Positions 19,372 to 37,087 of a stretch of 37,087 bases of DNA are shown piece by piece (position 1 is the first letter of the stretch; every line of letters starts with the position of its first letter). Under the pieces are notes generated by a model. That model made no database searches, was not told the DNA's origin, and saw only the letters and a list, made by a program, of their open reading frames with translations. Source of the stretch: Prevotella sp. (GTDB taxonomy: Bacteria > Bacteroidota > Bacteroidia > Bacteroidales > Bacteroidaceae); NCBI GenBank assembly GCA_017940545.1, contig JAGAYI010000043.1, positions 1 to 37,087 of the forward strand, in the 5' to 3' direction. A program made the position numbers and the translations under genes.

Positions 19372-19540
19372 GGAGAAACTGCCGGGGAACGAGGGAGAAA
19401 GGTACGGGGAAACGGGGAGCTTCTGCCGGGGTAGCCGGAATTTTGCGGGCGGCAGAAACAATTTGGGCGCCCGCCCCAATGCTTTTGGTCGGGCGCCCAA
19501 ATATCTTTGGTCGGGCGGGCCAATCCCTATTCTCCTGGAA
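19372..19540 (+). repeat. 169-bp structured repeat, copy B (constant head, variable three-arm tail)
   Basis: Aligns without gaps over 169 bp to 36919-37087. The first 63 bp differ at 2 positions. The 82-bp tail (19459-19540) holds one inverted arm, TTTGGGCGCCCG, and two direct arms, CGGGCGCCCAAA and CGGGCGGGCCAA. The arm sequences differ from copy C but still pair. An inner CCAA/TTGG pair also covaries. Intergenic, downstream of hemW and on the same strand. Confidence 0.85.
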
Positions 19541-19838
19541 ATGTGTCGCACAGACAGGTGGTGCGGCTATGCTGCAAAGTTACAAATAAAATATGGAAAC
19601 ACAAAAGAAAATGACCATTTTCTCGCTTGCGCGTGCGCAAATATTAATTAAGGTATTCAAGCTACTGAAATTGTTTTGACCTCGCGCCCGTTTATTCAAA
19701 AGCGAAAAAGAACACCTCTTGGTGCCACTGCCTGACGTAGAAGGCGAGAAAAGCAGGAGGCAGTTTAATCGCAAACGATTTTCTATTAAAAGATATTAAA
19801 AAAAAGACAAACATATACTTTCTATCAGAAATAATGCG

Positions 19839-19846
19839 TATATTTG
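19839..19846 (+). promoter_or_regulatory. -7 element of the MarR-family gene
   Basis: TATATTTG followed by C, 32 nt before the start at 19878. The upstream -33 match is weak. Confidence 0.5.
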
Positions 19847-19877
19847 CATCGTGAACGACTAAAACAAACATATCTGT

Positions 19878-20321
19878 ATGATTAATGACAATCTGAGACT
19901 GAACCGCCAAGGCTGCTTCCGTCTTTACACGGCGGCACGACTGCTGATACAGGTGTATCAGCCCTGGTTTGCACAGTTAGGCATCACCTACACACAGTAT
20001 CTGGTGCTGATGGTGCTCTGGGAGCAGGATGCGCAGCCCCTGAATGCCATTTCGCGGCGGCTCTATCTGGAGAGCAACACGCTCACACCACTCATCAAGC
20101 GCATGGAGGCCATGAAAATGGTGACGCGCAAGAAGAGCAAGGACGATGCCCGGCAGACCATCATCGTGCTGACCGAACACGGACGGGCCTTGCAGCAGCA
20201 GGCAAGCAGCATACCCGACTGCATGGCTGATGTACTGCACGAAAAGGGAATGACAGACGAGGAGTTTGCTGCCATCACACCCACGCTCGACCACCTGATA
20301 GAGGCACTCTCCAATAAGTGA
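19878..20321 (+). CDS. OhrR-like MarR-family transcriptional regulator
   Basis: A 147-residue winged-helix regulator close to the OhrR branch of MarR, which senses organic peroxides through an N-terminal cysteine. The diagnostic region is QGCFRLYTAARLL with Cys13 at the OhrR redox position, followed by LGITYTQYLVLMVLWE. The wing and recognition helix lie around ESNTLTPLIKRMEAMKMVTRKKSKDDAR (about 69-96), with LTEHGRAL after it. The next gene, 40 nt downstream on the same strand, encodes a ferritin-like protein, consistent with a peroxide- or iron-linked operon. No ohr peroxidase gene is adjacent. Confidence 0.85.
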   Translation: MINDNLRLNRQGCFRLYTAARLLIQVYQPWFAQLGITYTQYLVLMVLWEQDAQPLNAISRRLYLESNTLTPLIKRMEAMKMVTRKKSKDDARQTIIVLTEHGRALQQQASSIPDCMADVLHEKGMTDEEFAAITPTLDHLIEALSNK

Positions 20322-20361
20322 AGAAAAACTATTTTTTAACAACTAATAAAAAAACAAAGCA

Positions 20362-20826
20362 ATGATGACAAAAGATGAAGCATTGAAGCAGTTTGCCAAT
20401 CTCGGCGCTGTATGGTTTGGAAACAGTAAGCAACACTTCGCCTTCTCGGCCTACTGCCGCCTGAACGGCTGGAACAAGCTGGCCGACAAGTGGAAGGAAG
20501 AGGCTGAGGAAGAATGGGAAGAGGCCGAAGAGGTGCTACAGCGCCTGGTGGAAATGGGTTGCAAGCCCGCCGACCTGCAGGAGGCCATGAAGACCATCGA
20601 GTTCCCCTTCTGCGACGACCCGAAGCAGCAGATTGAAGGCGACTACGAACCCGAGGCCATCAAGACACTGAGCGAGCTGGCTGCCGCCTTCAGCGACGAC
20701 TACATCACTCAGAAGCTCATCTACAAGTGGATTGAGGACGAGAAGAACCACATGGCCTGGGAGGCTCAGTACCTGAACTACATCGAGAAGCTGGGCTACG
20801 AGAACTTCCTCGTGGCCATGATGTAA
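20362..20826 (+). CDS. Ferritin-like protein
   Basis: A 154-residue helical protein with a ferritin/rubrerythrin-like four-helix pattern. The helices with acidic ligands are KWKEEAEEEWEEAEEVLQRL (about 42-61) and KWIEDEKNHMAWEAQYLN (about 124-141), the latter with an ExxxH arrangement. Canonical EExxH spacing is not fully present, so metal binding is likely but not certain. It could be a bacterioferritin-like or DPS-like protein. Transcribed after the OhrR-like regulator and ended by a strong terminator, it may store iron or scavenge peroxide under that regulator's control. An alternative start is the second Met at 20365. Confidence 0.7.
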   Translation: MMTKDEALKQFANLGAVWFGNSKQHFAFSAYCRLNGWNKLADKWKEEAEEEWEEAEEVLQRLVEMGCKPADLQEAMKTIEFPFCDDPKQQIEGDYEPEAIKTLSELAAAFSDDYITQKLIYKWIEDEKNHMAWEAQYLNYIEKLGYENFLVAMM

Positions 20827-20854
20827 AGGAAACGCCGCCGTCACGGCAATGACT

Positions 20855-20910
20855 AAAAAAGAAGAGCGGATGCCATCACACAAACGGCATCCGCTCTTCT
20901 TTTTCTTTTT
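20855..20910. terminator. Strong bidirectional terminator
   Basis: GAAGAGCGGATGCC (20861-20874) and GGCATCCGCTCTTC (20886-20899) are perfect arms with an 11-nt loop. An A-tract precedes and a T-tract follows, so it serves both the ferritin-like gene and the convergent acetyltransferase gene. Confidence 0.92.
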
Positions 20911-20915
20911 TCACG

Positions 20916-21464
20916 TCACAGCTTGCGGATGACCCGGCAGGGATTGCCTACGGCCATCGAATCAGAAGGGATGTCCCTGGTCACCACGCTGCCCGCACCG
21001 ACGATGCAACGGTCGCCGATGGTTACCCCCGGGCACACCGTCACACCACCGCCCAGCCAGCAGTCCTCGCCAATGCTAATCGGAGAGCAACGCTCTGTAG
21101 GTTTGCGGCGTTCAACATAGTCGATGGGGTGGTTCGGAGTCAGGAACTGGCAGTTCGGACCAATCTGGGTGTTGCGCCCGATGGTTATCAAGCCGCCGTC
21201 GAGCATGGTGCCGTTGTAGTTGATAAACACATTCTCACCCAACCTGATGCCATGTCCGTGATCGCAATGAAAGGGTGGTGCCACCGTAGCCGATTCGGGA
21301 ATGCCGGGAATCAGCTCTTCTATCGTCGCCCTGTAGTCCTCATCCTCTACTGTCATGGTCTGCAGTCTTGCACAAATATGCTTGGCCCTGTAATAACTCG
21401 CCAGACATTCCTCGCTCGTAAAGTCATAGAACTCCTCGCTGCGCATCTTTTCAAATTCTGTCAT
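20916..21464 (-). CDS. Maltose O-acetyltransferase-like hexapeptide-repeat acetyltransferase
   Basis: Acetyl-CoA-dependent O-acetyltransferase of the left-handed beta-helix family. The 182-residue protein has the MAC N-terminal domain (TEFEKMRSEEFYDFTSEE), then hexapeptide repeats (GIRLGENVFINYNG, ITIGRNTQIGPN, ISIGEDCWLGGGVTV, VTIGDRCIVGAGSVVT). The catalytic His lies in TPNHPID, and the C-terminus is GNPCRVIRKL. The length matches E. coli Maa. The natural acceptor sugar is not predictable. Its start codon lies inside the end of a small lipoprotein gene on the same strand. Confidence 0.88.
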   Translation of the reverse strand: MTEFEKMRSEEFYDFTSEECLASYYRAKHICARLQTMTVEDEDYRATIEELIPGIPESATVAPPFHCDHGHGIRLGENVFINYNGTMLDGGLITIGRNTQIGPNCQFLTPNHPIDYVERRKPTERCSPISIGEDCWLGGGVTVCPGVTIGDRCIVGAGSVVTRDIPSDSMAVGNPCRVIRKL

Positions 21465-21591
21465 AGCCTTGCCGTGCCTCCGTGTTGTTCTCGTTCACGT
21501 TTGCGTCACTCTTCTGCTCCTTGTTTCCACAGGCGACGATGAGCAGCACGCCTGTCAGCACGAGTGCTGATGTCTTCATAAAATGCTTCAT
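21451..21591 (-). CDS. Small lipoprotein overlapping the acetyltransferase start (46 aa)
   Basis: From ATG at 21591 the frame reads MKHFMKTSALVLTGVLLIVA followed by Cys21, a clean lipoprotein signal with lipobox LIVAC. The 25-residue mature part is hydrophilic (GNKEQKSDANVNENNTE) and ends QGYDRI. Its stop overlaps the first 14 nt of the acetyltransferase gene, suggesting translational coupling. A canonical promoter lies 66 nt upstream. A second Met at residue 5 is an alternative start. No homologue is recognised; small Lys/Asn-rich lipoproteins like this are frequent in Bacteroidota. Confidence 0.65.
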   Translation of the reverse strand: MKHFMKTSALVLTGVLLIVACGNKEQKSDANVNENNTEARQGYDRI

Positions 21592-21656
21592 GTTGCGTAA
21601 AATTTTTTTTGACAATCCGGTTTATCCGAGAACCACATACAATTTGTGATTCGCCG

Positions 21657-21685
21657 CAAAGGTACGGAAACTTTTGTAAACCAAA
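21657..21685 (-). promoter_or_regulatory. Promoter of the small lipoprotein / acetyltransferase pair
   Basis: Minus strand TTTG (21685-21682) and TACCTTTG (21664-21657), separated by 17 nt. Confidence 0.65.
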
Positions 21686-21730
21686 GAAGAATTTACATGG
21701 AAATCATCTTCATGGGCATGGTGACGGTGT

Positions 21731-22729
21731 TCATGCTTGTTCGTGTTTGGTCACAAAGAATGAGAGCAACATGGACAACGCAAGGACACCGAAGATAACA
21801 GCCAAGCTGACAGGGGTGGGCACCTCTATATGAGGAATATTCAAGTTCAGACCTACGACAACACCCAGCCCATTGATATACTCGTTCATAGCAAGCAGCA
21901 TCTTGAGGCCGACGAAAATCAGGATGATGCCAAGCCCGTACTTCAGATACTTGAAGTATTTGGCCACAGCTGCCAGCGCAAAGTACAGGGCTCGGAGGCC
22001 GAGAATGGCAAAGATGTTGGAGGTAAGCACAATGAACGGGTCACGACTGACGCTGAATACGGCAGGGATGCTGTCTACGGCAAAGGCGACATCGGTAGTC
22101 TCGATGACCAGCAGTGCTACGAACAGCGGCGTGGCCATTCGTCGGCCGTTCTCCATGATGAAGAAGCGGTCGCCGTGCATGCGGTCGGTCACGGGATAGA
22201 GCTTGCGGAACCAGCGCACGATGATGTTCTGCGAGGGGTCTGTCTGCTCATTTTCATCGTGGGCAAACATCTTGCCGCCGGTATAGAGCAGGAACAATCC
22301 AAAGAGTCCCAACACCCACTCGAAACGCTCCACCATGGCTGCACCGGCAAAGATGAAGATGCTGCGCAGCACCAATGCGCCGAAGATGCCCCAAAAGAGC
22401 ACCTCGTGCTGATACTTACGCTCGATGCCGAAGAAGGAGAACAGCATGAGAAACACAAACAGGTTGTCCATCGACAGCGACTTCTCTATCAGGTAGCCAG
22501 CCAGAAACTCCAGCGCCATCTCGTGTGAGTCGCCGGGATAGAAGAAGTAGATGCCTGCGCAGAACAACAGCGAGACGCCTATCCACACGGCGGTCATCTT
22601 GAGAGCCTCGCCCACTCTCACCTCATGCTGTCCTTTCTTGCCGAACATCTTCAGGTCGGCCACCAGCATGAGTAATACTAACACATAGAAAACAATCCAG
22701 GCCCAAAGGGGCAATACCATTAAATTCAT
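21731..22729 (-). CDS. TerC-family integral membrane protein
   Basis: A 332-residue membrane protein of the TerC/Alx family, linked in other bacteria to tellurite resistance and manganese export. About eight hydrophobic helices can be seen. Family motifs include a charged residue pair in ADLKMFG, FLAGYLIEKSLSMDNLFVFLMLF with the Asp and Asn conserved in the family, and ALLVIETTDVAFAVDSIPAVFSVSRDPFIVLTSN with paired acidic residues likely to bind metal (about 200-230). The start at 22729 (MNLMVLPLW) is preferred over an ATG 12 codons upstream because the -7 element at 22735-22742 would fall inside that extension. Confidence 0.88.
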   Translation of the reverse strand: MNLMVLPLWAWIVFYVLVLLMLVADLKMFGKKGQHEVRVGEALKMTAVWIGVSLLFCAGIYFFYPGDSHEMALEFLAGYLIEKSLSMDNLFVFLMLFSFFGIERKYQHEVLFWGIFGALVLRSIFIFAGAAMVERFEWVLGLFGLFLLYTGGKMFAHDENEQTDPSQNIIVRWFRKLYPVTDRMHGDRFFIMENGRRMATPLFVALLVIETTDVAFAVDSIPAVFSVSRDPFIVLTSNIFAILGLRALYFALAAVAKYFKYLKYGLGIILIFVGLKMLLAMNEYINGLGVVVGLNLNIPHIEVPTPVSLAVIFGVLALSMLLSFFVTKHEQA

Positions 22730-22734
22730 GGGTG

Positions 22735-22742
22735 CAAAATTA
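22735..22742 (-). promoter_or_regulatory. -7 element of terC, very close to the start codon
   Basis: Minus strand TAATTTTG then CACCC then ATG. The 5-nt distance implies a leaderless or nearly leaderless transcript. Confidence 0.5.
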
Positions 22743-22802
22743 CATATAATAAGTGGTAATGGCACTAATGGTACGATTACGATATGGTTACATTTCTACG
22801 AA

Positions 22803-22853
22803 CATCAGCATGGCGGGGGCACGCCGCGACGGTACGCCCCCCGCTTGCTGATG
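22803..22853. repeat. GC-rich hairpin after the 129-residue protein gene
   Basis: CATCAGCATGGCGGGGGC and GCCCCCCGCTTGCTGATG are 18-nt arms pairing with two mismatches across a 15-nt loop. It lies just downstream of the leftward gene at 22860. There is no T-tract, so it is either an imperfect terminator or another palindromic repeat. Confidence 0.6.
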
Positions 22854-22859
22854 ACGCTG

Positions 22860-23249
22860 CTACAGCAGCAGCGCGATGGTCTCTACATCCTTGCCCTCGT
22901 AGAAACGCGGCTCGAAGACGGGATTGTACCTGAAGTCTCCGAAGCGGAACAGCTGCAGCGCGCAGAACTGGCGGTCGTCACTCAGACAAAGCTCCAGACG
23001 GAAGTTGCCGTTGACACCCGTTGCGGGCTTGCCCTTCTCTTGAATGTCGGCAGCCATCTTGTCGAGCGGCATTTCCAAAAGACGTTCCACGCGCTCACCC
23101 TCCGAGGGGCTGTATTCCAAGACAATGGCCCTGGCCCGACTCTGAGTAGGCGTATAGACAGCCTTGGTTGAAAACAGTGATTTCTTAATCTCGATATGCT
23201 GATAGGCGGAGAGGGCAGCAGCCATCTCCAAATTTTTGATACTTGACAT
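22860..23249 (-). CDS. Conserved-looking hypothetical protein (129 aa)
   Basis: No family recognised. The protein lacks a signal peptide or membrane segment and is probably cytoplasmic. It starts MSSIKNLEMAAALSAYQHIE, has a mixed charge pattern (EYSPSEGERVERLLEMPLDKM) and an aromatic C-terminal part (LQLFRFGDFRYNPVFEPRFY). The codon pattern and intact length support a real gene. The upstream region has only a poor -7 match (minus strand TACCTTCA at 23287-23280). Confidence 0.65.
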   Translation of the reverse strand: MSSIKNLEMAAALSAYQHIEIKKSLFSTKAVYTPTQSRARAIVLEYSPSEGERVERLLEMPLDKMAADIQEKGKPATGVNGNFRLELCLSDDRQFCALQLFRFGDFRYNPVFEPRFYEGKDVETIALLL

Positions 23250-23315
23250 AGTTGTATAAGCCCCCTGAGTTCTTTGTCCTGAAGGTACAAAGCGGCGTAG
23301 CCGAGCGGGGGGATG

Positions 23316-23420
23316 GGGGTCTGAACGACCACTCTTTAATGATTAAATATATTGTGAATTGTTAAACTGTCCAGGTCTGCTTGTTCAGACCCCTGTAGCC
23401 CCCGAAACTTAGGGGGCATA
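23316..23420. repeat. Inverted-repeat-bounded spacer (MITE-like or palindromic repeat)
   Basis: GGGGTCTGAAC (23316-23326) and its exact reverse complement GTTCAGACCCC (23383-23393) bound an AT-rich 56-bp segment. Directly after comes a second hairpin, GCCCCC-GAAACTTA-GGGGGC. It lies between two leftward genes. No coding potential is seen. Confidence 0.6.
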
Positions 23421-23428
23421 AGATAGTT

Positions 23429-23836
23429 TCAACGAATGATGTGCCTCAGTGCGATGACGTAATAATCGCACGAAGCCGACATGCAGAAAGGAGCCGTTTC
23501 CAAACGGCATCTGCAGTCGTAGCAGGAGTAAAGAGGTTTGACGTTATGCTGCCGGAAGGCAAGACTGCCATACGGCGTGACGGTTCTTTCCGTCTTTGAG
23601 CCTTGAGTAGGCAGAATGCGCTGAGGCCGCGAACTGCAAATGCGGTAAGTCTGCGAGGCATCAGTCAGCGTGGCTTCCTGGCGATGCTGGTGCTGCGGAG
23701 CCACAATGGCCAACTCGAGATGCTGACAGGCAGTTTCGACAGCCGCACCGTCATGGTGCTGCCAGCCTGTAAAAACCGCCAGGAACACGGCGCAAAAAGC
23801 CGCCAAAATCCTTGTCATTAACAGAATCCGTCTCAT
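23429..23836 (-). CDS. Hypothetical cysteine-rich exported or membrane-anchored protein (135 aa)
   Basis: Not a named family that I know. From M at 23836 there is a hydrophobic N-terminus (MRRILLMTRILAAFCAVFLA) that could be a signal peptide or anchor, then a His-rich segment (QHHDG, PQHQHRQ). The C-terminal half has a regular pattern of cysteines (YRICSS, YSCYDCRCRLE, PFCMSASCDYYVIALRHIIR). The closing segment feels conserved from similar Bacteroidota proteins, but I cannot name one. The frame is open to 23869, but the promoter at 23845-23875 overlaps that extension. Confidence 0.6.
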   Translation of the reverse strand: MRRILLMTRILAAFCAVFLAVFTGWQHHDGAAVETACQHLELAIVAPQHQHRQEATLTDASQTYRICSSRPQRILPTQGSKTERTVTPYGSLAFRQHNVKPLYSCYDCRCRLETAPFCMSASCDYYVIALRHIIR

Positions 23837-23844
23837 TCCAGCTG

Positions 23845-23957
23845 CAAAGTTACGAAAAGTCGAGAGCATAACAAAGAAACTTGTTCCTTTTTTACCGAGA
23901 CGGAGTAATTTTGCGACTTTTGTCGCAAAGTTACGAATAGTCGAGAGAAGGACAAAA
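23845..23957 (-). promoter_or_regulatory. Tandem duplicated promoters with an inverted repeat
   Basis: Two copies of a promoter lie 81 bp apart: TTTG (23875-23872), 19 nt, TAACTTTG (23852-23845), and TTTTG (23957-23953), 19 nt, TAACTTTG (23933-23926). The core GCAAAGTTACGAAAAGTCGA differs at one base between them. TTTGCGAC-TTTT-GTCGCAAA (23910-23929) overlaps the upstream -7 element and could be an operator. Confidence 0.65.
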
Positions 23958-24103
23958 CAAACGCGTTTTTTTTTATGTCGAGGCAGAGAATTCGCATACG
24001 CTTTACATCTTCAGGTCAAAGTTTTTTGCCGTTGCAGACGGCAAAGGAACAATAAAACAACCGTATTTAAAAGACTTGTTAATTAGAGAAAGAGAGCAAT
24101 ACC

Positions 24104-24979
24104 TCATTTTCCCCGATATTCCTTGGGCGTCAAGCCCGTCTCACGCTTGAAGAAGTTATTGAAGGCTGGAGGGTTGGCAAAATGAAGGCGTTCGGCTATC
24201 TCGTAGGTCAGCAGGCCGCTGGTGTGCAACAACACCTTGGCACGCAACACGACGGCACGGTTAATCCAATACATCGCACTGTGGCCGCTGGCTCGGCTGA
24301 TGACCGCCGAGAGGTGGTGGGGAGTGATGTGTAGCTGGTCGGCATAGAAGGGAATCTTGCGCTCACGTTCGCAATGACGACTCACCAGCGTCTTGAACTG
24401 CTGGAACAGCTTCTGGTGGCGTGAAGTGGCAGTTTTGTCCACCATGCTGTCAGAGGCCTGCTTGATATACTGCACATCGGCCACCATCGCCCTGAGCAGC
24501 TGCAGCACGGTTTCACGGCGGTAGGGAGACTGTGTGGCCACATCCCAAAGCAAATACATCATACGCAGCAGCAGTTCGCAATCCTTGTCAGAAGCGTTGG
24601 TGACGTTACGCTCAACCACCTGCACGGCTTCTTTCATGGCAATGCCACACACTTCTACGTTCTGGCCGATATGGTCAAACTCCAGTATCACATCGGGCGT
24701 GGTGAGTATCACGGTTCCCCGCTCGAAATGATACTGTTCCAAGTCCAGAAGCACGTCAGCCTCGCCGTTGATGAACAACAGCAGGCGCGGTTCCGGCAAC
24801 TGATAAACTTCGCCCTCACGGAAGAACGTCTTGTCTGACGGTCGCCCGTTCAGGATGATGCTGAGGTCATCGTTGTTGAATACGTGACTCTCGGCTCCGG
24901 CAAAGTTCTGCAGGTTGATGGAGTCGATGGGGAAGTAATTGATGTTTTTGCTGTCGGTCATCATTGCATTTTTTTCCAT
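24104..24979 (-). CDS. AraC-family transcriptional regulator next to the efflux operon
   Basis: A 291-residue regulator: an N-terminal cupin-like sensing domain of about 150 residues (VLLDLEQYHFERGTVILTTPD) and a C-terminal AraC DNA-binding domain with two helix-turn-helix motifs (FYADQLHITPHHLSAVISRA and TYEIAERLHFANPPAFNNFF), ending GLTPKEYRGK. M at 24979 is preferred: a longer frame reaches 25159, but the -7 element at 25063-25070 lies within it. Divergent from the TolC/HlyD/ABC operon, it probably controls that operon through the direct repeats at 25111-25140. Confidence 0.87.
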   Translation of the reverse strand: MEKNAMMTDSKNINYFPIDSINLQNFAGAESHVFNNDDLSIILNGRPSDKTFFREGEVYQLPEPRLLLFINGEADVLLDLEQYHFERGTVILTTPDVILEFDHIGQNVEVCGIAMKEAVQVVERNVTNASDKDCELLLRMMYLLWDVATQSPYRRETVLQLLRAMVADVQYIKQASDSMVDKTATSRHQKLFQQFKTLVSRHCERERKIPFYADQLHITPHHLSAVISRASGHSAMYWINRAVVLRAKVLLHTSGLLTYEIAERLHFANPPAFNNFFKRETGLTPKEYRGK

Positions 24980-25062
24980 ATTAGCGATTCCGCTCACGTT
25001 CGGCCATCTGCATGCAAGTATGCACAGGTGCTGTTCAATTGCGGAATTGTACGATTCGATTG

Positions 25063-25070
25063 CAAAATTA
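25063..25070 (-). promoter_or_regulatory. -7 element of the AraC-family gene
   Basis: Minus strand TAATTTTG followed by C, 84 nt before the start at 24979. Confidence 0.45.
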
Positions 25071-25110
25071 GTACTTTTTTGGGAGAATAACGAACGGAAA
25101 GGGTGGAAAT

Positions 25111-25140
25111 CGTACAAATTCATACTTTTTTCATACAAAT
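25111..25140 (+). promoter_or_regulatory. Direct repeats, likely AraC-family operator of the efflux operon
   Basis: CGTACAAAT (25111-25119) and CATACAAAT (25132-25140) match at 8 of 9 positions and are 21 bp apart, two helical turns. They lie immediately upstream of the expected -33 region of the tolC promoter, the usual place for an AraC-type activator. Confidence 0.6.
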
Positions 25141-25168
25141 GGGTAATAGCTTCGTCCAAGAAAAACTG

Positions 25169-25176
25169 TATATTTG
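25169..25176 (+). promoter_or_regulatory. -7 element of the efflux operon
   Basis: TATATTTG followed by C, 17 nt before the start at 25193. No TTG is present at -33, consistent with activator dependence. Confidence 0.6.
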
Positions 25177-25192
25177 CACCAGAAAAAACAAA

Positions 25193-26521: not shown

Positions 26522-26528
26522 TACTGGA

Positions 26529-27428: not shown

Positions 27429-27462
27429 AATGTGAAGAGTAAAAAAGTAAAAAGTGAAAAAT
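27426..27462. repeat. Half element GTGAAGAGTAAAAAAG before the ATPase start
   Basis: One arm of the GTGAAGAGTGAA-type element lies between the adaptor stop and the ATPase ATG at 27474. It can be read in the ATPase frame from a GTG at 27432 (KSKKVKSEKF), but that part is not conserved ATPase sequence. Confidence 0.6.
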
Positions 27463-27473
27463 TTACTGCTGCA

Positions 27474-28977: not shown

Positions 28978-28998
28978 AACGCTTGAATTGAAACAATT

Positions 28999-30084: not shown

Positions 30085-30087
30085 CTG

Positions 30088-31113: not shown

Positions 31114-31197
31114 CCGACGGTTCTTTCCTGCCAGAAAAGTTGATGCTCACCACATAAAAAAGTTGGTGCTTACTGCTTTTTTCTGATGGAAAATGTG

Positions 31198-31205
31198 TAA
31201 TTTTG
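31198..31205 (+). promoter_or_regulatory. Possible -7 element before the zinc-ribbon gene
   Basis: TAATTTTG with a T-rich stretch (TTTTTTC) about 20 nt upstream. It lies ahead of the truncated gene copy at 31235. Confidence 0.4.
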
Positions 31206-31234
31206 TCCCCCGATAAGAAATATTCAGAACATGA

Positions 31235-31320
31235 TGTCAATACGGCGGCCTGACTATTCTTGGTGTTGAGGACTATTGCCGGTTGAAGAATAGGGTCAGG
31301 CGGAAGGAAAAGTTAACTGA
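31235..31320 (+). pseudogene. C-terminal remnant of a small membrane protein gene
   Basis: Translates to CQYGGLTILGVEDYCRLKNR and a basic tail, matching CQYGGLTILGVEGYNRLKNW at the end of the intact small protein at 31752-31952. The N-terminal two thirds are missing and a 1-nt shift near the end changes the original stop. DNA similarity continues up to and into the ATG of the zinc-ribbon gene. Confidence 0.8.
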
Positions 31321-31718
31321 TGGCTTGGAAACTGAAATATCGCTGCAAGGCTTGTGGATATGAAGTCGAAGTGTATGACGGACGCGGATTGTTCCGTCAG
31401 CAGATAACAGCCATGTTTTGCCCAGACTGTAAGACTGTCCAAAATATCGTCGTGGGCGGTATCATTGCTGACGTGGCACCTTCCTTCAGAAGCGAAGTAG
31501 GCCGTCTGTGCTTACAGTGTGGCAGTGACCGTATCAGGATATGGGATAAGAAAACCTGTCCAAAGTGTACGAGTAAGCGAGAGCAGAATGATGCTTGCAT
31601 CGATTCTGCCGAGCGTGAGCACACTCGACCGGAGGTCAAGTGTACGAGTAAGCGAGAGCAGAATGTTAAGTTTCAGGGAACAATGGAACCTACAGGAGAA
31701 AAAGAGTTTTGGACATGA
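31320..31718 (+). CDS. Double zinc-ribbon protein with a repeat insertion
   Basis: A 132-residue cytoplasmic protein with two presumed zinc sites: C9/C12 with C34/C37 (CKACG, CPDCK) and C64/C67 with C80/C83 (CLQCG, CPKC). Between them is the segment IVVGGIIADVAPSF. The natural end is probably GTMEPTGEKEFWT. It is separated from the last CPKC by about 35 residues (84-118) encoded by two identical 28-bp DNA repeats and a hairpin, so this part is an insertion. Function unknown; a metal-dependent nucleic-acid or protein-binding role is only inference. The start overlaps the remnant of the small membrane protein gene (TGATG), pointing to former translational coupling. Confidence 0.75.
   Translation: MAWKLKYRCKACGYEVEVYDGRGLFRQQITAMFCPDCKTVQNIVVGGIIADVAPSFRSEVGRLCLQCGSDRIRIWDKKTCPKCTSKREQNDACIDSAEREHTRPEVKCTSKREQNVKFQGTMEPTGEKEFWT
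31563..31665 (+). repeat. Two 28-bp direct repeats and a hairpin inside the zinc-ribbon gene
   Basis: GTGTACGAGTAAGCGAGAGC-containing units at 31563-31590 and 31638-31665 are identical. Between them GCAGAAT-GATGCTTGCATCG-ATTCTGC forms a hairpin. Read as TSKREQN twice. Confidence 0.85.
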
Positions 31719-31751
31719 ACAGGAATTATCAGAAAAGCAAGGCATACGGAC

Positions 31752-31952
31752 ATGTGCGAGATGACATTACCCTTCTATATTCTATCGTTTGCCCAAATGG
31801 TGCTCCCGATAAGTGCTGCTGCAAAAGGTGTGTTATGGACGATACTCTTCGGACTGGCAAAGACCTGCCAGTATGGTGGCCTTACCATTCTTGGAGTTGA
31901 AGGCTATAACCGATTGAAGAATTGGTTCAAACATAGGAAAAAAAGTGACTGA
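31752..31952 (+). CDS. Small membrane protein (66 aa)
   Basis: Not a named family. One long hydrophobic stretch, or two short helices, over about residues 5-47 (LPFYILSFAQMVLPISAAAK and then VLWTILFGLAKTCQYGGLTI), followed by GVEGYNRLKNWFKHRKKSD, a basic cytoplasmic tail. An ATG at 31761 gives an equally good start. A truncated paralogue lies at 31235-31320. The stop TGA overlaps an ATG followed by GCC TGA, matching the start of the zinc-ribbon gene at 31320. This copy therefore seems to have once been followed by its own zinc-ribbon gene. Confidence 0.7.
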   Translation: MCEMTLPFYILSFAQMVLPISAAAKGVLWTILFGLAKTCQYGGLTILGVEGYNRLKNWFKHRKKSD

Positions 31953-32001
31953 TGGCCTGAATAGTTACGTATCTTTACAACCATAAGGCAGCGAAACTGC
32001 G

Positions 32002-32907
32002 ATGACAATAGACTTGTATATCAACGAAGCAAATGACTACGCACAGGATATTGGTGCGCCCGTCCTGCACACCCACGTCTCGGTGATACGTTACGACGAG
32101 GTGGGTGAGATACGTCATACGATGAACCGGTTCAACTGCTATGGCATATTCCTGCAACAGGAGTTTCCCGAGGGACTGACGTACGGAATCGGCAGCTACC
32201 ATGACGGCGACGGTTCGCTGATAGCTTTATCGCCCGGACAGATAGGCGGCAAGCATGATGACGGTACACGCCGGCAGTACCACGGCTGGGTACTGCTGTT
32301 CGACAATGAGTTCATTCAGGGGACCGTCATAGAGCAGAAGCTCGACAGCTACCAATTCTTTTCCTACCATTCCAACGAGGCACTCATCCTGACCCCTGAC
32401 GAGAAAGGCATACTGTATCAGCTCATGGCCAACCTGCGTCAGGAGCTGGCCACGCAGTCGCAGGCATTCGGACACGACGACATCGTCAGAAACTACATCC
32501 TGCTCATTCTCGACTACTGCAACCGTTTCTATTTCCGTCAGTATAAGGAGATGACGGCAGAGGGAAGCGACATCCTCAGCCGCTTCCAGCAGGTGCTGAC
32601 CGACTATTATGCCCAAGGCATGCAACGGAAAAACGGACTGCCGAGCGTGAAATACTGCGCCAGCGAGCTGTGTCTGTCACCTGGCTACTTTGGTGACATT
32701 ATCAGAGACGCCCTTGGTGAGAGTCCGAAGGACTATATGCGCAACTTCGTGGTGATGCGTGCCAAGAACCTCATTCTCAGCGGCAAATCCATCGACAGTG
32801 TGGCCCAAGAACTGGGTTTTGAATATCCGCAGCACTTCACCCGTATGTTCAAGAATGCCACAGGACAGACCCCCCGCCAATTCTCCGACAGCCAACGCAA
32901 AAAGTAA
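32002..32907 (+). CDS. AraC-family transcriptional regulator
   Basis: A 301-residue regulator with an N-terminal ligand-sensing domain (about 1-170, HTHVSVIRYDEVGEI, YHGWVLLFDNEF) and a C-terminal AraC DNA-binding domain: first helix-turn-helix CASELCLSPGYFGDIIRDAL, then SPKDYMRNFVVMRAKNLI, second SVAQELGFEYPQHFTRMFKN and the closing GQTPRQFSDS. A weak -7 TATCTTTA lies upstream. Such regulators often control an adjacent oxidoreductase gene. Here the downstream gene is a deleted RibD-like frame, so its current target is unclear. Confidence 0.88.
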   Translation: MTIDLYINEANDYAQDIGAPVLHTHVSVIRYDEVGEIRHTMNRFNCYGIFLQQEFPEGLTYGIGSYHDGDGSLIALSPGQIGGKHDDGTRRQYHGWVLLFDNEFIQGTVIEQKLDSYQFFSYHSNEALILTPDEKGILYQLMANLRQELATQSQAFGHDDIVRNYILLILDYCNRFYFRQYKEMTAEGSDILSRFQQVLTDYYAQGMQRKNGLPSVKYCASELCLSPGYFGDIIRDALGESPKDYMRNFVVMRAKNLILSGKSIDSVAQELGFEYPQHFTRMFKNATGQTPRQFSDSQRKK

Positions 32908-32962
32908 TCGCTCGGCCAAAGGACGCTTGCAAGGCAAGAACCTCATTTTGGGTAGTTTTGCC

Positions 32963-33006
32963 CGTAATCTGTCTATGCAGGTTACGCAATTTTTGACGTA
33001 CCTTTG
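32963..33006 (+). promoter_or_regulatory. Promoter with overlapping inverted repeat before the broken RibD-like gene
   Basis: TACCTTTG at 32999-33006 is the -7 element. CGTAATCTG (32963-32971) and CAGGTTACG (32978-32986) form a 9-bp inverted repeat with one mismatch covering the -33 position, a plausible operator for a neighbouring regulator. Confidence 0.6.
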
Positions 33007-33030
33007 CAGCAGTTTCTAAACAAAACAGCA

Positions 33031-33266
33031 ATGAGACCATACATTATTTACCACATGATGGCTTCGCTCGACGGCAGGATTGACTGCGCGATGACCGAGC
33101 AGATAGACGACACCAACCATTATTATGATGCCTTAGCATCGACGGACGGGCAGGCATGGCAGCGGCTTTCGATGGCCGCCCGAAGGAGCGCAAACCCGTG
33201 CGGCTCACCTTCAAGAGCGTGGAAGAACACGACGGCATCGTCTGGATGAGGTATCAAGTAAAATAA
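33031..33266 (+). pseudogene. RibD C-terminal-domain-like (dihydrofolate reductase fold) gene with internal deletion
   Basis: The first about 45 codons (MRPYIIYHMMASLDGRIDCA through HYYDALAS) are a good N-terminus for RibD_C/DHFR-like reductases. After about position 33165 the matching sequence jumps to another frame, which reads FDGRPKERKPVRLTFKSVEE and ends VWMRYQVK with a stop at 33266, the expected C-terminus of the same family. The middle, roughly 150 residues by comparison with the family, is missing and the ends are out of frame. The first frame stops at 33249 after 72 residues. The promoter is still intact. Confidence 0.8.
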
Positions 33267-33277
33267 TTAGTTATATA

Positions 33278-33877
33278 ATGAAGACAAAGACATTCGTTCA
33301 TCGCCTCTTAACGGCAGCCGTGGCCCTGCTCGTCATGTCGTGCAGCAGCGGCGAAGCTCAGGCACAAGAGCCTGACCATAGTACAATGGCACAGAAAATG
33401 AATATAACGATTGATGGCCAGACGGCGACTGTGACCCTCGCCGACAACAGTGCGACACAGGCACTTGTGGGAAAACTCCAGGAGCATCCCGTCACGGCAA
33501 CGCTCAGTTCGAGTGGCGGTTTTGAAATCTGGGGGGCCTTAGGCTTCGCGCTGCCCACAAGCGACCAGCAGACAGATGCCCAGCCGGGCGACGTCATTCT
33601 CTATAACGGCAGCAACATTTGCATCTTCTATGGCACCAACACGTGGAGCTACACCCGCCTGGGACATATCGACGGTCTGACAGAGAGCGAGTTGCGCACA
33701 TTTCTCCATGCCGGCGAGACGGACATCCATGTGACGCTCTCGCTCTACCAATCCACAGCCATCCGCTCTGTCAGCGTCAGCGGGAGCCCGTCAAGAAGCT
33801 ACACGCTGCAAGGCACACTGGCTCAAAGAGGAACAAAGGGAATTATCATCAGTAACGGAAAGAAAGCACTAAGATGA
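33278..33877 (+). CDS. Exported cyclophilin-like fold protein with T9SS-like C-terminal tail
   Basis: A 199-residue protein. The N-terminus is a signal sequence with either a lipobox (VMSC, Cys22) or a normal cleavage site after AQA (about 29). Residues about 41-150 match the bacterial cyclophilin-like domain (MNITIDGQTATVTLADNSAT, GDVILYNGSNICIFYGTNTWSYTRLGHID), for which no enzyme activity is established. The last about 25 residues (YTLQGTLAQRGTKGIIISNG and KKALR) resemble the end of type IX secretion C-terminal domains seen in Prevotella. The stop overlaps the start of the hydrolase gene (ATGA), so translation is coupled. Confidence 0.72.
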   Translation: MKTKTFVHRLLTAAVALLVMSCSSGEAQAQEPDHSTMAQKMNITIDGQTATVTLADNSATQALVGKLQEHPVTATLSSSGGFEIWGALGFALPTSDQQTDAQPGDVILYNGSNICIFYGTNTWSYTRLGHIDGLTESELRTFLHAGETDIHVTLSLYQSTAIRSVSVSGSPSRSYTLQGTLAQRGTKGIIISNGKKALR

Positions 33878-35004
33878 AGAAACTGACAATGATAGCAATG
33901 CTCGTGGCCAGTGTGCTGACCGCATGCAACCATAAAGACAATCAAGCTAAAACAGAAGAAAATATGCAGCAGTTAGTATTAACACAGGAGTGGGACAAGG
34001 TGTTCCCGCTGAGTGACAAGGTGAACCACCGTAAGGTGACGTTTGAAACACAGTATGGACAGACGCTTGCAGCCGACCTCTACGAGCCGAAGGACGCTCA
34101 GGGCAAGCTGGCTGCTATCGCTGTCAGCGGCCCGTTTGGTGCCGTGAAGGAGCAGTCGAGCGGCCTCTATGCCATGCGGATGGCCGAGCGCGGTTTTGTG
34201 GCCCTGGCCTTCGACCCCTCCTATACCGGTGAGAGCAGTGGCGAGCCGCGCCGCACAGCCTCGCCCGACATCAACACCGAGGACTTCATGGCCGCCGTTG
34301 ACTTCCTCTCGAAGCAGGAGAATGTGGATGCTGACAAAATCGGCATCATCGGCATCTGCGGATGGGGAGGCATCGCCCTGAACGCTGCGGCTGCTGACAC
34401 GCGTATCAAGGCGACAGTGGCCTCGACGATGTACGATATGACCCGCGTCAGCGGCAACGGCTATTTCGACAGCGAAGACAAGGAAGAGTCGCGCCATGCA
34501 GCCCGTGCATTCGTGTCCATACAACGCCTGACCGACCCGACGGCGATGGCCGGCGGTGTGGTGAACCCGCTGCCCGACGATGCTCCGCAGTTCGTGAAGG
34601 ACTACTACGACTACTACATCACCCCGCGCGGCTACCACAAGCGCAGCGGCAACTCGAACGACGGCTGGCGCACCATCGGCACCCAGGCTTACGCCAACGC
34701 CCGCTTCCTCTACTACATCAACGAGATACGTTCTGCCGTCCTCGTCATGCACGGCGAGAAGGCCCACTCGCGCTACTTCGGCGAGGCTGCCTATCACTAC
34801 ATGGTGGACGGCAAGGCTGAGGGATATAACGTCGTGGGCAAGCCCAATCCCAATCCTGAGAACAAAGAGTTGCTCATCATCCCCGGCGCCTCGCATTGCG
34901 ACCTCTACGACGGCGGCTACACCGAACTCGTCGGCAAGTGCGAACCGAAGAATCTCATCCCCTGGGACAAGCTCGCAGACTTTTTCAATAAGTCTTTTAG
35001 TTGA
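33874..35004 (+). CDS. Alpha/beta hydrolase lipoprotein (YcjY-like)
   Basis: A 376-residue exported protein (lipoprotein signal ending in VLTAC, Cys18) with an alpha/beta-hydrolase domain. Family segments are GPFGAVKEQSSGLYAMRMAE, FVALAFDPSYTGESSGEPR, DINTEDFMAAVDFLS and a C-terminal His in IPGASHCDLYD. The nucleophile elbow reads GICGWGG (160-166). Related proteins with GICAGGG have Cys in the nucleophile position, so Cys162 would be the nucleophile here, but the elbow is unusual because a Trp replaces the following Gly. Substrate unknown. It is translationally coupled to the cyclophilin-like gene. Its last 8 nt overlap a gene remnant on the other strand. Confidence 0.85.
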   Translation: MKKLTMIAMLVASVLTACNHKDNQAKTEENMQQLVLTQEWDKVFPLSDKVNHRKVTFETQYGQTLAADLYEPKDAQGKLAAIAVSGPFGAVKEQSSGLYAMRMAERGFVALAFDPSYTGESSGEPRRTASPDINTEDFMAAVDFLSKQENVDADKIGIIGICGWGGIALNAAAADTRIKATVASTMYDMTRVSGNGYFDSEDKEESRHAARAFVSIQRLTDPTAMAGGVVNPLPDDAPQFVKDYYDYYITPRGYHKRSGNSNDGWRTIGTQAYANARFLYYINEIRSAVLVMHGEKAHSRYFGEAAYHYMVDGKAEGYNVVGKPNPNPENKELLIIPGASHCDLYDGGYTELVGKCEPKNLIPWDKLADFFNKSFS

Positions 35005-35116
35005 CAAGATTTGAGGTCATTTCGCCGGTCATCAAGTCAAAGTGCAGACACGCTGGTGGCGTAGGCTGCAGGTCGTAGTAGTCCATTTCGGCTATCGGCA
35101 GACAGAAATACGCCAA
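34997..35116 (-). pseudogene. C-terminal coding remnant (unknown family)
   Basis: On the minus strand a 39-codon frame reads LAYFCLPIAEMDYYDLQPTP and then PACLHFDLMTGEMTSNLVN before a stop at 34997. There is no start codon and a stop lies just upstream. The composition looks like genuine protein sequence rather than a random frame, so it is probably the 3' end of a deleted gene. I do not recognise the family. Confidence 0.4.
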
Positions 35117-35127
35117 TCAGCTCGTTT

Positions 35128-35331
35128 TTACCATTTCAGCGCTTCCTGCAGAATCACGCCGTCGGTCATGGGGCTGTCGGCCTCAGTGAAGGCATTGGCC
35201 TTATACTGTATGCAGAGCATGGTCAGGTTCTCCGTGCCCGTGTTCTTCAACGCACGCTTGCCATCGGGAGCCACACGCACGATGGTGCCCTCGCCGGCGG
35301 GGCGCAAGAAAGGTGGGCCGATGCTAATCAT
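35128..35331 (-). pseudogene. C-terminal part of a cupin-like protein
   Basis: A 67-codon frame starting at ATG 35331 reads MISIGPPFLRPAGEGTIVRV and later RALKNTGTENLTMLCIQYKA. This looks like the second half of a small cupin barrel. The N-terminal half is absent, and the sequence just upstream is the end of the WbuC-like gene, so the gene is truncated. It could still be translated from its ATG, 4 nt after that stop. Confidence 0.55.
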
Positions 35332-35334
35332 AGC

Positions 35335-35736
35335 CTATTTCTTTATCTCCAAGATTCCGTCCACTTCATGCTCCACGAACGGACCCTCCTTGCACTCTAA
35401 GAGTACGCTGGATTCAAGGCATTCCAACCCGTGCCACACGTTTTTGGGAATATCCACACCATAGGTTTCACTATCTTGGCTGATGACACAGGACTCCAGG
35501 ACCTCACCGTCATCATTGTAGGTAGAAACCCTAACCTTACCCTTCAGTATGACAAACGTCTCGGACTTGGTGGGATGGTGATGCACTGGGATGAATGTAC
35601 CAGGCTCCAGACAATTGAGGAACCGGTGGCACTTTTCATCCAGACGCTCGTAGAAATTGTAATTCATCCTCAGCCGTGGTGACTTCTTGGCTTGTTCCAC
35701 CACGCCATTGATCAGATTGTTGTCTATTATCTTCAT
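35335..35736 (-). CDS. WbuC-family cupin-fold protein
   Basis: A 133-residue cytoplasmic cupin of the WbuC family, found near surface-polysaccharide genes in many bacteria. The reaction is not established. Features are an N-terminal helix (NNLINGVVEQAKKSPRLRMN), RFLNCLEPGTFIPVHHHPTKSETFVILKG (cupin motif 1 with His residues and Glu for metal binding), VDIPKNVWHGLE (motif 2 with His) and the ending KEGPFV. The length fits the family. It lies 32 nt after the YbjQ-like gene on the same strand. Confidence 0.82.
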   Translation of the reverse strand: MKIIDNNLINGVVEQAKKSPRLRMNYNFYERLDEKCHRFLNCLEPGTFIPVHHHPTKSETFVILKGKVRVSTYNDDGEVLESCVISQDSETYGVDIPKNVWHGLECLESSVLLECKEGPFVEHEVDGILEIKK

Positions 35737-35768
35737 CTTTCAGTTTTAAATCATTTAGGATAATTGAC

Positions 35769-36089
35769 TCAGATAACGACTGCCGTTCCACTGGTGGCAA
35801 CCATCAGCATGGAGCCGTTAGCTCCTATAGTCTCATAGTCGATGTCTATACCTACGATAGCATTGGCTCCAAGTCTCTGTGCGCGTTGCATCATTTCCTG
35901 TATGGAGGTGTCTTTTGCCTCACGAAGTACCTCCTCGTAACTGCCTGAGCGTCCTCCTACAATGTCTCGGATGCCAGCCATGAAGTCACGGAACACGTTG
36001 GCTCCAATTATTGTTTCACCTGTCACCACTCCCTTGTACTCGCGGATGGTGTGACCTTCAATCTGCGGGGTTGTTGATAGTATCATCAT
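35769..36089 (-). CDS. YbjQ/UPF0145-family protein
   Basis: A 106-residue protein of the UPF0145 (YbjQ) family, thought to form pentamers. Function unknown. The family pattern is complete: [23 protein letters not shown], the [18 protein letters not shown] helix, [20 protein letters not shown] and a closing SGTAVVI. It begins MMIL; either Met could be the start. The probable promoter is at 36138-36145. Confidence 0.9.
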
Positions 36090-36137
36090 TGTTTTTTTTA
36101 AAAAAAATTCTATTTGTTAGACGTAAGAAGGACGCTG

Positions 36138-36145
36138 CAAAATTA
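36138..36145 (-). promoter_or_regulatory. -7 element of the YbjQ-like gene
   Basis: Minus strand TAATTTTG followed by C, 49 nt before the start. Confidence 0.45.
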
Positions 36146-36290
36146 GCAAAAATAGTTTGAACAGTGGGTTTCTTGCATCTTAAAAAATTGAAAAAATGAG
36201 TCTCTAAAGCATTCGTAAAATCGACGTTTTTCGGAAAAAATTAAGCACGAATGAGATTTTTTTCGTATCTTCGCCGAAAATATTTTCAGT

Positions 36291-36380
36291 ATGTATTATC
36301 AGAGGCTGTCAGACAAGGCTATTATCAACGGATTCCGAAGAGGCGATGCCGACATCATCCGCGAGTATTTCTACGGATAG
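36291..36380 (+). pseudogene. N-terminal remnant, sigma-70-like Bacteroidales protein
   Basis: A 29-codon frame reads MYYQRLSDKAIINGFRRGDA and DIIREYFYG and then hits TAG. LSDKAII-GFRRGD--IIREYFYG recalls the start of a sigma-factor-like protein family in Prevotella and Bacteroides, usually about 150-190 residues. Only the first helix pair is left. The text between here and 36455 gives no clear continuation. Confidence 0.5.
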
Positions 36381-36454
36381 GCGAGCAAGGCTCTTTGGCA
36401 GACAGTTACGAGCCGACGGCTTACAAGGATATTAATTTTTCAAAAGCAGAGATT

Positions 36455-36829
36455 ATGGAACAGAGAAGAACAACACCAAAATTTATCACATCATTAGAGC
36501 CAAACGAGATCTTCGTCTTCGGCAGCAACTTGAAGGGAATGCACGGTGGCGGGGCGGCTTATATCGCCTTCCGTAAGTTTGGGGCTATCATGGGGCAGGG
36601 CGTGGGCTTGCAAGGTCATAGCTACGCCATTCCAACGATGCAAGGCGGTGTGGAAACCATCCGTCCGTATGTCGCTGAGTTTATCGAATTCGCCAAGCAG
36701 CACCCCGAACTGACGTTCCTCGTTACTCGCATCGGCTGCGGCATCGCCGGCTTCACAGACGAAGAAATCGCTCCGCTGTTTGAAGAGGCGCACGGCGTGG
36801 AGAATATCGTGCTGCCTCCGAATTGGTAA
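36455..36829 (+). CDS. Macro-domain-like / A1S_2505 phage-related family protein
   Basis: A 124-residue cytoplasmic protein. The core has FVFGSNLKGMHGGGAAYIAF (about 22-41), then GVGLQGHSYAIPTMQGGVETIRPYV and FLVTRIGCGIAGFTDEEIAPLF. These glycine-rich loops match a small family annotated as phage-related in some genomes and resembling ADP-ribose-binding macro domains. Substrate unknown. The start MEQRRTTPKFI fits the family. The frame is open to 36251, but that extension overlaps the gene remnant at 36291. Confidence 0.75.
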   Translation: MEQRRTTPKFITSLEPNEIFVFGSNLKGMHGGGAAYIAFRKFGAIMGQGVGLQGHSYAIPTMQGGVETIRPYVAEFIEFAKQHPELTFLVTRIGCGIAGFTDEEIAPLFEEAHGVENIVLPPNW

Positions 36830-36918
36830 GCAGGTGCAGGTGGGAACCGGAACGTTGTCATCATTCACCGTCTCAATAACTGATCGTTTTCTGAGCACGA
36901 AGCAGTACTATCTCTCTG

Positions 36919-37087
36919 GGAGAAACTGCCGGGGAACGAGGGAGAGAGGTACGGGGAAACGGGGAGTTTCTGCCGGGGTAGCTGGGATTTCGCGGGCGCG
37001 ATAAACAATTAACACGCCCGTGATAATCGTTTATCGCGGGCGTGTTAATTGTCTATCACGGGCGTGTTAATCCCTTTCCTGTTGGAA
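36919..37087 (+). repeat. 169-bp structured repeat, copy C (may continue past the window)
   Basis: Gap-free match to 19372-19540. Its tail (37006-37087) holds an inverted arm ATTAACACGCCCGTGAT and direct arms ATCGCGGGCGTGTTAAT and ATCACGGGCGTGTTAAT. The inner GATAA/TTATC pair also differs from copy B but still pairs. Intergenic, downstream of the macro-domain-like gene and on the same strand. Confidence 0.85.

What the first reader, a model, noticed from the sequence alone, without database searches (positions are those of the whole stretch)
19372..37087. Dispersed repeat with a constant head and a sequence-variable, structure-conserved three-arm tail
Copies at 19372-19540 and 36919-37087 align over 169 bp without a gap. 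The 63-bp head differs at 2 positions. In the 82-bp tail a GCCCG/CGGGC core is constant, but the flanking arm bases change in concert: TTTGGGC/GCCCAAA in one copy, TTAACAC/GTGTTAA in the other, and the third arm follows the same change. The inner CCAA/TTGG versus GATAA/TTATC pair also covaries. A related, rearranged element lies inverted at 1-155. Compensatory change between paralogous copies suggests the folded form matters, as RNA or as a single-stranded DNA intermediate. It could be a mobilised palindromic element (REP/MITE-like) or a family of structured RNAs with individual pairing arms.
Basis: partly seen in the sequence, partly recalled or inferred. Interest (0 to 1): 0.78.

Follow-up and report, generated by a model that had tools for sequence, protein, structure and literature searches.

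The report
HU-protein genes with dispersed palindrome arrays
The repeats are gene-less copies of a small genetic unit found in Prevotella and its relatives, in which a gene for a DNA-binding protein is followed by a set of evenly spaced palindromes that are probably that protein's own binding sites; the sequence of the palindromes changes from copy to copy while their geometry stays fixed.

Summary
In detail: the copies align without gaps (128 of 169 identical, head 61 of 63), and 8 pairs of the folded tail changed on both sides and still pair. They belong to a large family: 71 hits to the 21-bp head unit, reversed control 0; 54 copies parsed.

Tail: four near-palindromic 22-bp units. Head: G-rich 22-bp direct repeats. 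Lag 22 is the best lag in 48 of 48 arrays and 46 of 46 heads. Three copies directly follow intact genes for an HU-HIG (PF18291) protein with a predicted winged helix; two follow gene remnants. In relatives, 74 of 80 loci usable, 22-bp self-identity follows the same gene (0.48; controls about 0.25), also in other genera. Array copies without an intact gene are dispersed there too (29 of 40 loci).

Reading: an HU-winged-helix gene with its own DNA-site array, scattered as gene-less derivatives that mostly keep an inward promoter box (36 of 44). An RNA fold is not favoured: no consistent G.U excess. Binding and mode of movement are inferred.

The parts
   Evidence: lag 22 is the best lag in 46 of 46 heads; G skew positive in 54 of 54 copies
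19438..19525 (-). copy 1, array of four near-palindromic 22-bp units (6-bp cores start at 19446, 19468, 19490, 19512), arm type TTTGGGC/GCCCAAA
19574..19582 (-). Bacteroidetes-type -7 box (TAACTTTGC on the - strand) that would transcribe into the array
   Evidence: 36 of 44 copies have such a box within 200 bp; the name of the box is recalled
36919..36981 (-). copy 2, direct-repeat region
36985..37072 (-). copy 2, array of four 22-bp units (cores start at 36993, 37015, 37037, 37059), arm type TTAACAC/GTGTTAA; the contig ends at 37087, promoter side missing
61..139 (+). third copy, inverted: direct-repeat region
1..52 (+). third copy, inverted: the array part present (two units of arm type AACA/TGTT; cores at 15-20 and 37-42), cut by the contig start

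Best explanation
The repeat is the 3' part of a small genetic unit whose complete form is: promoter - gene for a ~211-aa DNA-binding protein (HU-like domain, PF18291, plus a C-terminal domain predicted to be a winged helix) - array of about four near-palindromic 22-bp units - several ~22-bp C-rich direct repeats. SHOWN: this order, the 22-bp period and the palindromy in many species; gene-less and gene-remnant copies dispersed in the genomes; an inward promoter-like box on most copies of the own genome; within a copy the units share one arm type while types differ between copies. INFERRED: the array is the DNA site of the protein of the same unit. Copies of the protein would bind the 22-bp-phased dyads, whose symmetry is kept because each half-site meets one half of a dimer, and the HU part would bend or wrap the phased DNA; so any arm sequence is allowed as long as both halves of every unit change together. 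INFERRED: gene-less derivatives persist and spread because a protein made elsewhere still acts on them in trans, so that the genome carries tens of sites able to regulate or bridge DNA. How the units are copied to new places is unknown; a few have been carried inside an IS-type terminal inverted repeat.
Confidence: 0.6

Rival explanations
1. Structured RNA: the array is transcribed (3' UTR of the HU gene, or its own promoter in gene-less copies) and the long hairpin RNA works with the HU-like protein, much as E. coli HU works with naRNA4 from REP325 in condensing the nucleoid.
For: 36 of 44 copies carry a -7-type box within 200 bp pointing into the array, against 11 pointing away and 1 and 2 of 43 in control stretches; array RNA folds with mean z -7.6 (48 copies here) and -4.6 (71 in relatives); naRNA4/HU precedent (passages of PMC6907758).
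Against: No consistent G.U over A.C excess on the transcript strand (the one nominal excess, 211 vs 158 in relatives, is reversed here, 37 vs 56); both strands fold about equally; no Rfam match in the window at gathering scores (other loci not searched); the direct repeats and the strict 22-bp phase are not needed by one long hairpin. On the head side of the element 15 of 46 flanks also carry a box of the same direction, so boxes are not confined to the array side.
Confidence: 0.2
2. Ordinary non-autonomous transposon (MITE) moved by an IS transposase through terminal inverted repeats; the array is passive cargo, made regular by slippage and quasi-palindrome correction.
For: One copy (L010) is bounded on both sides by AACGTGAGTTCGAYGTAAG, and three more (L005, L009, L013) have it on one side: 5 of 13 genome sites of that sequence, at 4 loci, each with TA before ACGTGAG; it resembles MITE239 of P. 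gingivalis (PMC4596501, Table 2). Palindrome correction could give covariation without selection.
Against: In the fetched loci of the own genome the repeat was found at no other copy, and copy ends differ between the 16 pairs compared. The array is tied to one protein family across genera, which passive cargo would not be.
Confidence: 0.12
3. REP/REPIN elements moved by a RAYT (Y1) transposase.
For: One Y1 transposase gene lies at C33:1787-2653, near copy L044; GTAG occurs near the array foot in 21 of 49 copies.
Against: That gene is flanked on both sides by its own palindrome (GATCATGGGGACAGG...CCTGTCCCCATGATC), unlike the 22-bp units; GTAG is absent from the foot window in 28 of 49 copies and, where seen, is part of the head sequence.
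Confidence: 0.03
4. Bidirectional transcription terminators or attenuators that only happen to be repeated.
For: Strong hairpins between genes; in the gene-bearing form the array follows the stop codon.
Against: No constant T-run after the hairpin in the copies printed (by eye); the direct repeats and the exact 22-bp spacing are not needed for termination; no clear orientation bias towards neighbouring genes (by eye).
Confidence: 0.05

Closest known systems
HU-HIG domain proteins (Pfam PF18291, 'HU domain fused to wHTH, Ig, or Glycine-rich motif')
   Same: The protein belongs here by profile score and by predicted fold.
   Different: An attached 3' array of phased palindromes and its dispersal were not found described: HU-HIG with Bacteroidetes gave 0 papers; two searches gave 0; no title or abstract start among the few papers listed described it (listings only, capped).
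PINSR of Prevotella intermedia/nigrescens (PMC4755523; abstract and section 3.4 read)
   Same: Intergenic ~188-bp imperfect repeat, lineage-specific, high copy (177 and 184), no terminal inverted repeat, probably no coding sequence, origin unknown.
   Different: Its sequence is only in a figure that is not held, so homology could not be tested; no link to a HU gene or to 22-bp palindromes is stated in the parts read.
BrickBuilt MITE of Porphyromonas gingivalis (PMC4596501; abstract, start of the text, section 7 part 1 and passages seen)
   Same: Intergenic dispersed element with 23-nt tandem repeats, predicted stem-loops and promoter activity; another P. gingivalis MITE (MITE239) has an end resembling the inverted repeat of four copies here.
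   Different: One direct repeat without spacers, IS5-like terminal repeats; no HU gene is mentioned as part of it in the parts read.
E. coli HU with REP325/naRNA4 (PMC6907758, passages)
   Same: An HU protein works with a palindromic repeat that is transcribed.
   Different: There HU is the general housekeeping protein and is not encoded by the repeat (recalled); here a dedicated HU-winged-helix gene is part of the unit.
REP/REPIN with RAYT transposase (abstracts of PMC3733652 and PMC3116915)
   Same: A protein gene next to palindromes, with gene-less palindromes dispersed in the genome.
   Different: The protein is a transposase and the palindromes are 20-40 bp; here an architectural-type protein and phased 22-bp arrays.

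Membership tests
HU-HIG (PF18291) | profile score above Pfam's cut-off | tested here: met
   37.4, 42.0 and 41.5 bits against a cut-off of 26.2, 3 of 3 intact proteins
HU-HIG (PF18291) | HU domain fused to a winged helix (one of the fusions in the family's description) | tested here: met
REP/RAYT | RAYT gene flanked by the same palindrome | tested here: not met
   the one Y1 gene found is flanked by another palindrome; genome 70.5% complete
REP/RAYT | GTAG or CGTC tag at the foot of the palindrome | tested here: inconclusive
   GTAG within a 20-nt foot window in 21 of 49, neither tag in 28
MITE of an IS element | terminal inverted repeats | tested here: not met
   one such repeat found at 4 loci only; copy ends vary in 16 pairs compared
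MITE of an IS element | target-site duplication | tested here: inconclusive
   TA outside the inverted repeat at 5 of 5 ends of those 4 loci; not assessable for the others
BrickBuilt | 23-nt direct repeats without spacers, in an element with IS5-like ends | tested here: not met
   22-bp units, half of them palindromic; the BrickBuilt end itself was not searched for
PINSR | homology to the 188-bp consensus | not testable with these tools
structured RNA family of Rfam | match at the gathering score | tested here: not met
   0 matches in the window; other loci not searched
structured RNA family of Rfam | pairing kept through G.U on the RNA strand | tested here: not met
   no consistent G.T over A.C excess
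HU-naRNA4/REP325-like nucleoid system | HU-dependent DNA-DNA bridging through palindromes | not testable with these tools
   needs experiment

The most novel reading that the evidence does not exclude
A self-spreading architectural module: a dedicated HU-winged-helix protein and its own 22-bp-phased site array form one unit that multiplies in the genome as gene-less satellites. Protein and site type diversify together, so one genome holds several mutually distinct sets of protein and sites that fold the chromosome or regulate genes at tens of places: a REP/RAYT-like way of life without a transposase.
Probability: 0.35. Interest if true: 0.88.

Novelty: new variant of a known kind. Interest (0 to 1): 0.72.

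Why it matters
Dispersed Prevotella repeats such as PINSR have had no known source or function (PMC4755523, section 3.4). A parent gene turns the question into a test: does the HU-winged-helix protein bind its own array, and do the satellites answer to it? If so, this would be a natural series of DNA sites that keep phase and symmetry while replacing much of their sequence, useful for learning how HU-type proteins gain sequence specificity and how bacterial chromosomes acquire new architectural sites. It also warns against reading compensatory change in repeats as proof of RNA structure.

Tried and rejected
RNA structure as the main cause: set aside for want of a consistent G.U signature, although transcription is likely. 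RAYT/REP: rejected by the flanking palindrome of the RAYT found. IS-type MITE for the whole family: rejected; only 4 loci (a thirteenth site, L253, has one spaced core pair and no head, left unclear). Winged helix as the part that sets the array type: not supported by partial Mantel tests. Solved structures by sequence: none at E up to 1. Plasmids: no match; phages: one weak match (24% identity, a 5.5-kb unannotated record, fetched but not analysed). Viral contigs: head pattern 0, protein 0 of 52 candidates. The head 21-mer in the named genome collection: 0 exact matches, though the tool may leave out near records; the first 89 bases of copy 1 in relatives: 0 of 59 (G080, which does have related heads, was not among them). 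A strict empty site was not obtained: where the relatives' hemW-like gene (name recalled) aligns, the alignment stops at or before its 3' end, so presence or absence at the same junction cannot be read. Two-sided-change counts do not clearly exceed shuffles: 26 and 23 here (shuffle maxima 29 and 23), 39 and 32 in relatives (maxima 39 and 31); extra pair types do exceed them in relatives (96 against at most 80, 80 against at most 60), not in the own genome. Distant HU homologues: of 11 loci L267-L277 only L267 and L269 clearly show a 22-bp lag. L260 had too little 3' flank; L266 (partial protein) showed no array. Remnant calls go down to E 0.01; two of the seven (L133, L148) have E 0.004-0.005. 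Foldseek itself could not be run; VIA-align 2 was, a second look at Foldseek's ranking only.
Full report
What was checked. In the tail, folded as one hairpin of 41 pairs, 8 pairs are changed on both sides and still pair, none on one side only. The inverted element at the left edge is a truncated third copy. The window is a complete contig (C5) of a 2.22-Mb, 65-contig, 70.5%-complete genome (probably a MAG, my inference). Copies 2 and 3 sit at contig ends, where assemblies break on repeats, and the end of C5 repeats the end of C8; a few other contig ends likewise share sequence (C48/C52, C54/C60), so the copy count may be slightly inflated and copy 2's tail may be shared by two real copies.

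Family in the genome. Copy 1 has 44 blastn matches; the 21-bp head unit GGGAGAAACTGCCGGGGAAAC has 71 matches at up to 3 mismatches, the pattern read backwards 0. I parsed 59 candidates and kept 54: L025 was cut by a contig end and four hits were spurious. 49 have a recognisable array next to the head, 48 long enough for the tests. The tail is four near-palindromic 22-bp units: a 6-bp core (mostly CGSSCG) with flanking arms that are alike within one copy and differ between copies: AACA/TGTT, TTGACAC/GTGTCAA, TTAACAC/GTGTTAA, TTTGGGC/GCCCAAA, TGCCAG/CTGGCA and others. The arrays had been phased with a 22-bp score, so the period was tested separately: lag 22 gives the highest self-identity in 48 of 48 arrays (mean 0.71, other lags 0.14-0.32) and 46 of 46 heads (0.66, others 0.20-0.40), and in 0 of 43 control stretches. 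At 72% identity the 48 arrays fall into 10 clusters of 23, 10, 4, 3, 2, 2, 1, 1, 1 and 1; one singleton, L056, is a shortened array. Heads are shared across types: 48 of 819 pairs of different type have heads at least 90% identical, with mean array identity of only 0.56. The head is G-rich on one strand (G skew positive in 54 of 54).

Is pairing more than chance? Over 47 distinct arrays, 68.8% of cells pair in the long hairpin and 72.7% in the unit palindromes; shuffled partners give at most 53.5 and 54.3, slid partners at most 32.9 and 34.2. In relatives (66 distinct arrays) the figures are 56.5 and 62.9% against at most 43.1 and 45.9 for shuffles. The count of pairs with two-sided change does not clearly exceed shuffles, so it adds little. 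Dyads recur every 11 bp.

Relatives. 44 of 150 genomes of the genus (own included) have a homologue at E<=1e-8. Of 29 relatives' loci fetched, 28 had enough 3' flank; averaged over them the palindrome score peaks at period 22: 15.0 against 11.9-12.9 at other periods, 12.2 in 5' flanks and 11.9 in shuffles; 22 was best or tied in 21 of 28 loci. A named collection gave 214 coding loci, of which the best 80 were kept, all labelled Prevotella or higher taxa that contain it. Of 80, 74 were usable (6 dropped for odd reading frames): 22 is the best or tied period in 46 of 74, against 8 of 74 random stretches and 3 of 72 5' flanks; self-identity at lag 22 is 0.483 at 0-110 bp and 0.432 at 90-240 bp after the stop, 0.26 and 0.24 in the two controls. 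The best-scoring run of palindromes starts 17 bp after the stop codon in 25 of 74. Beyond the array the coding strand is C-rich in 72 of 74, and 25 of 74 show YTCYCC motifs at 22/44-bp spacing (0 of 72 in 5' flanks, 0 of 284 random stretches). At family level 49 of 251 genomes match (own included), in 13 of 30 genera; in the close set L254-L265, lag 22 is the best lag in 11 of 11 loci with enough flank, 9 of them from genera g34, g38, g43, g45 and g54, and 22 is the best or tied palindrome period in 8 of 11. Surroundings vary: the commonest neighbour family occurs in 6 of 80 loci.

Gene-less copies. From the matches I took 40 array loci in 12 relatives: 11 had an intact-like gene, 7 remnants (E up to 0.01) and 22 none. 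Remnants include a promoter and N-terminus fused to the array (L129) and C-terminal pieces (L124, L140). In the own genome C33 keeps parts near codons 7-31 and 174-208 and has lost what lies between. Two gene-less copies 98.4% identical over 257 bp stand at unrelated places (L039/L040). A second, distant branch with TTCCGACTTAAGTCGGAA units is dispersed in G206, a 99%-complete genome: 40 match rows at about 17 places by my reading; the own genome has one copy that combines this array type with the usual head (L011/L290). This speaks against an artefact of one draft genome.

Transcription. Of 44 copies with 200 bp beyond the array, 36 have a TAnnTTTGC box (the Bacteroidetes -7 element, recalled) pointing into the array and 11 one pointing away; in control stretches 1 and 2 of 43. 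On the head side, 1 of 46 flanks has a box pointing at the element and 15 of 46 one of the same direction as the proposed transcript. Gene-less copies thus look like transcription units. Against RNA structure as the selected feature: mismatches in the palindromes are G.T 37 and A.C 56 here, 211 and 158 in relatives (nominal p 0.007, cells not independent); for the long hairpin 75 and 59, 247 and 242; both strands fold with nearly equal z; no Rfam match in the window.

Mechanism proposed. The simplest reading of 22-bp phasing, dyads and free arm sequence next to a gene for an HU-winged-helix protein is a DNA site array for that protein. Over 68 loci array and protein distances correlate (Mantel 0.53 with the HU domain, 0.47 with the C domain, p 0.001), but the partial test does not single out the winged helix (0.02, p 0.38) and favours the HU domain (0.28, p 0.001); linkage may explain all of it. 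So 'the array belongs to this protein' is supported by constant association; 'the winged helix reads the arms' is not. Dispersal is shown, its enzyme is not. Four loci carry an IS-type inverted repeat like that of P. gingivalis MITE239, one of them on both sides of a 444-bp unit. The only Y1/RAYT gene found has its own flanking palindrome.

Comparison. PINSR (PMC4755523, section 3.4) is the most similar described repeat that I found: intergenic, 188 bp, 177-184 copies, no inverted termini, no known source; whether it is the same kind could not be tested. BrickBuilt (PMC4596501, parts seen) shares tandem ~23-nt units and promoter activity but not the gene or the palindromic units. E. coli HU with REP325/naRNA4 (PMC6907758, passages) is the nearest working analogy. 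Searches for a description of HU-HIG genes with 3' palindrome arrays found none (listings only); the library lacks most subscription journals, so this is weak evidence of novelty.

Verdict. Real, general, and not a REP/RAYT or plain MITE family: a new variant of the kind 'protein gene with dispersed gene-less palindromes', with an architectural-type DNA-binding protein in place of a transposase. Anatomy is well supported; function is inferred.

Noticed in passing
window 18765-18791: A palindromic stretch (CCCCACCCTCTCCAAGGAGAGAGGGGG) lies in frame inside the hemW-like (name recalled) coding sequence (SLTPHPLQGERGLKSY); the same query stretch (about 755-791) is matched at 8 places in G032 and 2 in G080: a dispersed palindrome, here inside a gene.
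   Followed up: partly
window 19230-19299: A 30-bp tandem repeat (TTGCAAATGCACCTACCGACGGCGGTCGAA), two copies and the start of a third, just before copy 1.
   Followed up: no
L240 (C33) 1787-2653 and flanks: RAYT-like Y1 transposase gene flanked on both sides by its own long palindrome, next to an element with a gene remnant.
   Followed up: partly
copies of the own genome, array to promoter box: Distances from array to promoter box cluster near 26, 37, 48, 59 and 81 bp, i.e. steps near 11 bp; shared ancestry of subfamilies may explain this.
   Followed up: no
L036 and L039, left flanks: Their alignment (394 bp, 74.9%) runs 162 bp into the left flank, yet they carry different elements at the same junction, as if one element replaced another.
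   Followed up: no
heads of the own genome's copies: 46 of 54 heads contain four G3+ runs with short loops (G-quadruplex-like pattern) on one strand; 12 of the 74 relatives' regions do.
   Followed up: no
G206 (L289, L291-L296): Second array type TTCCGACTTAAGTCGGAA, 22 bp, at about 17 places in a 99%-complete genome, beside a distant HU-winged-helix gene.
   Followed up: partly
L077 (C30), 3' of a distant HU-like gene: A tract of ~22-bp repeats containing GGACAATCGTTTGAC follows the gene; related to the second array type by eye.
   Followed up: no
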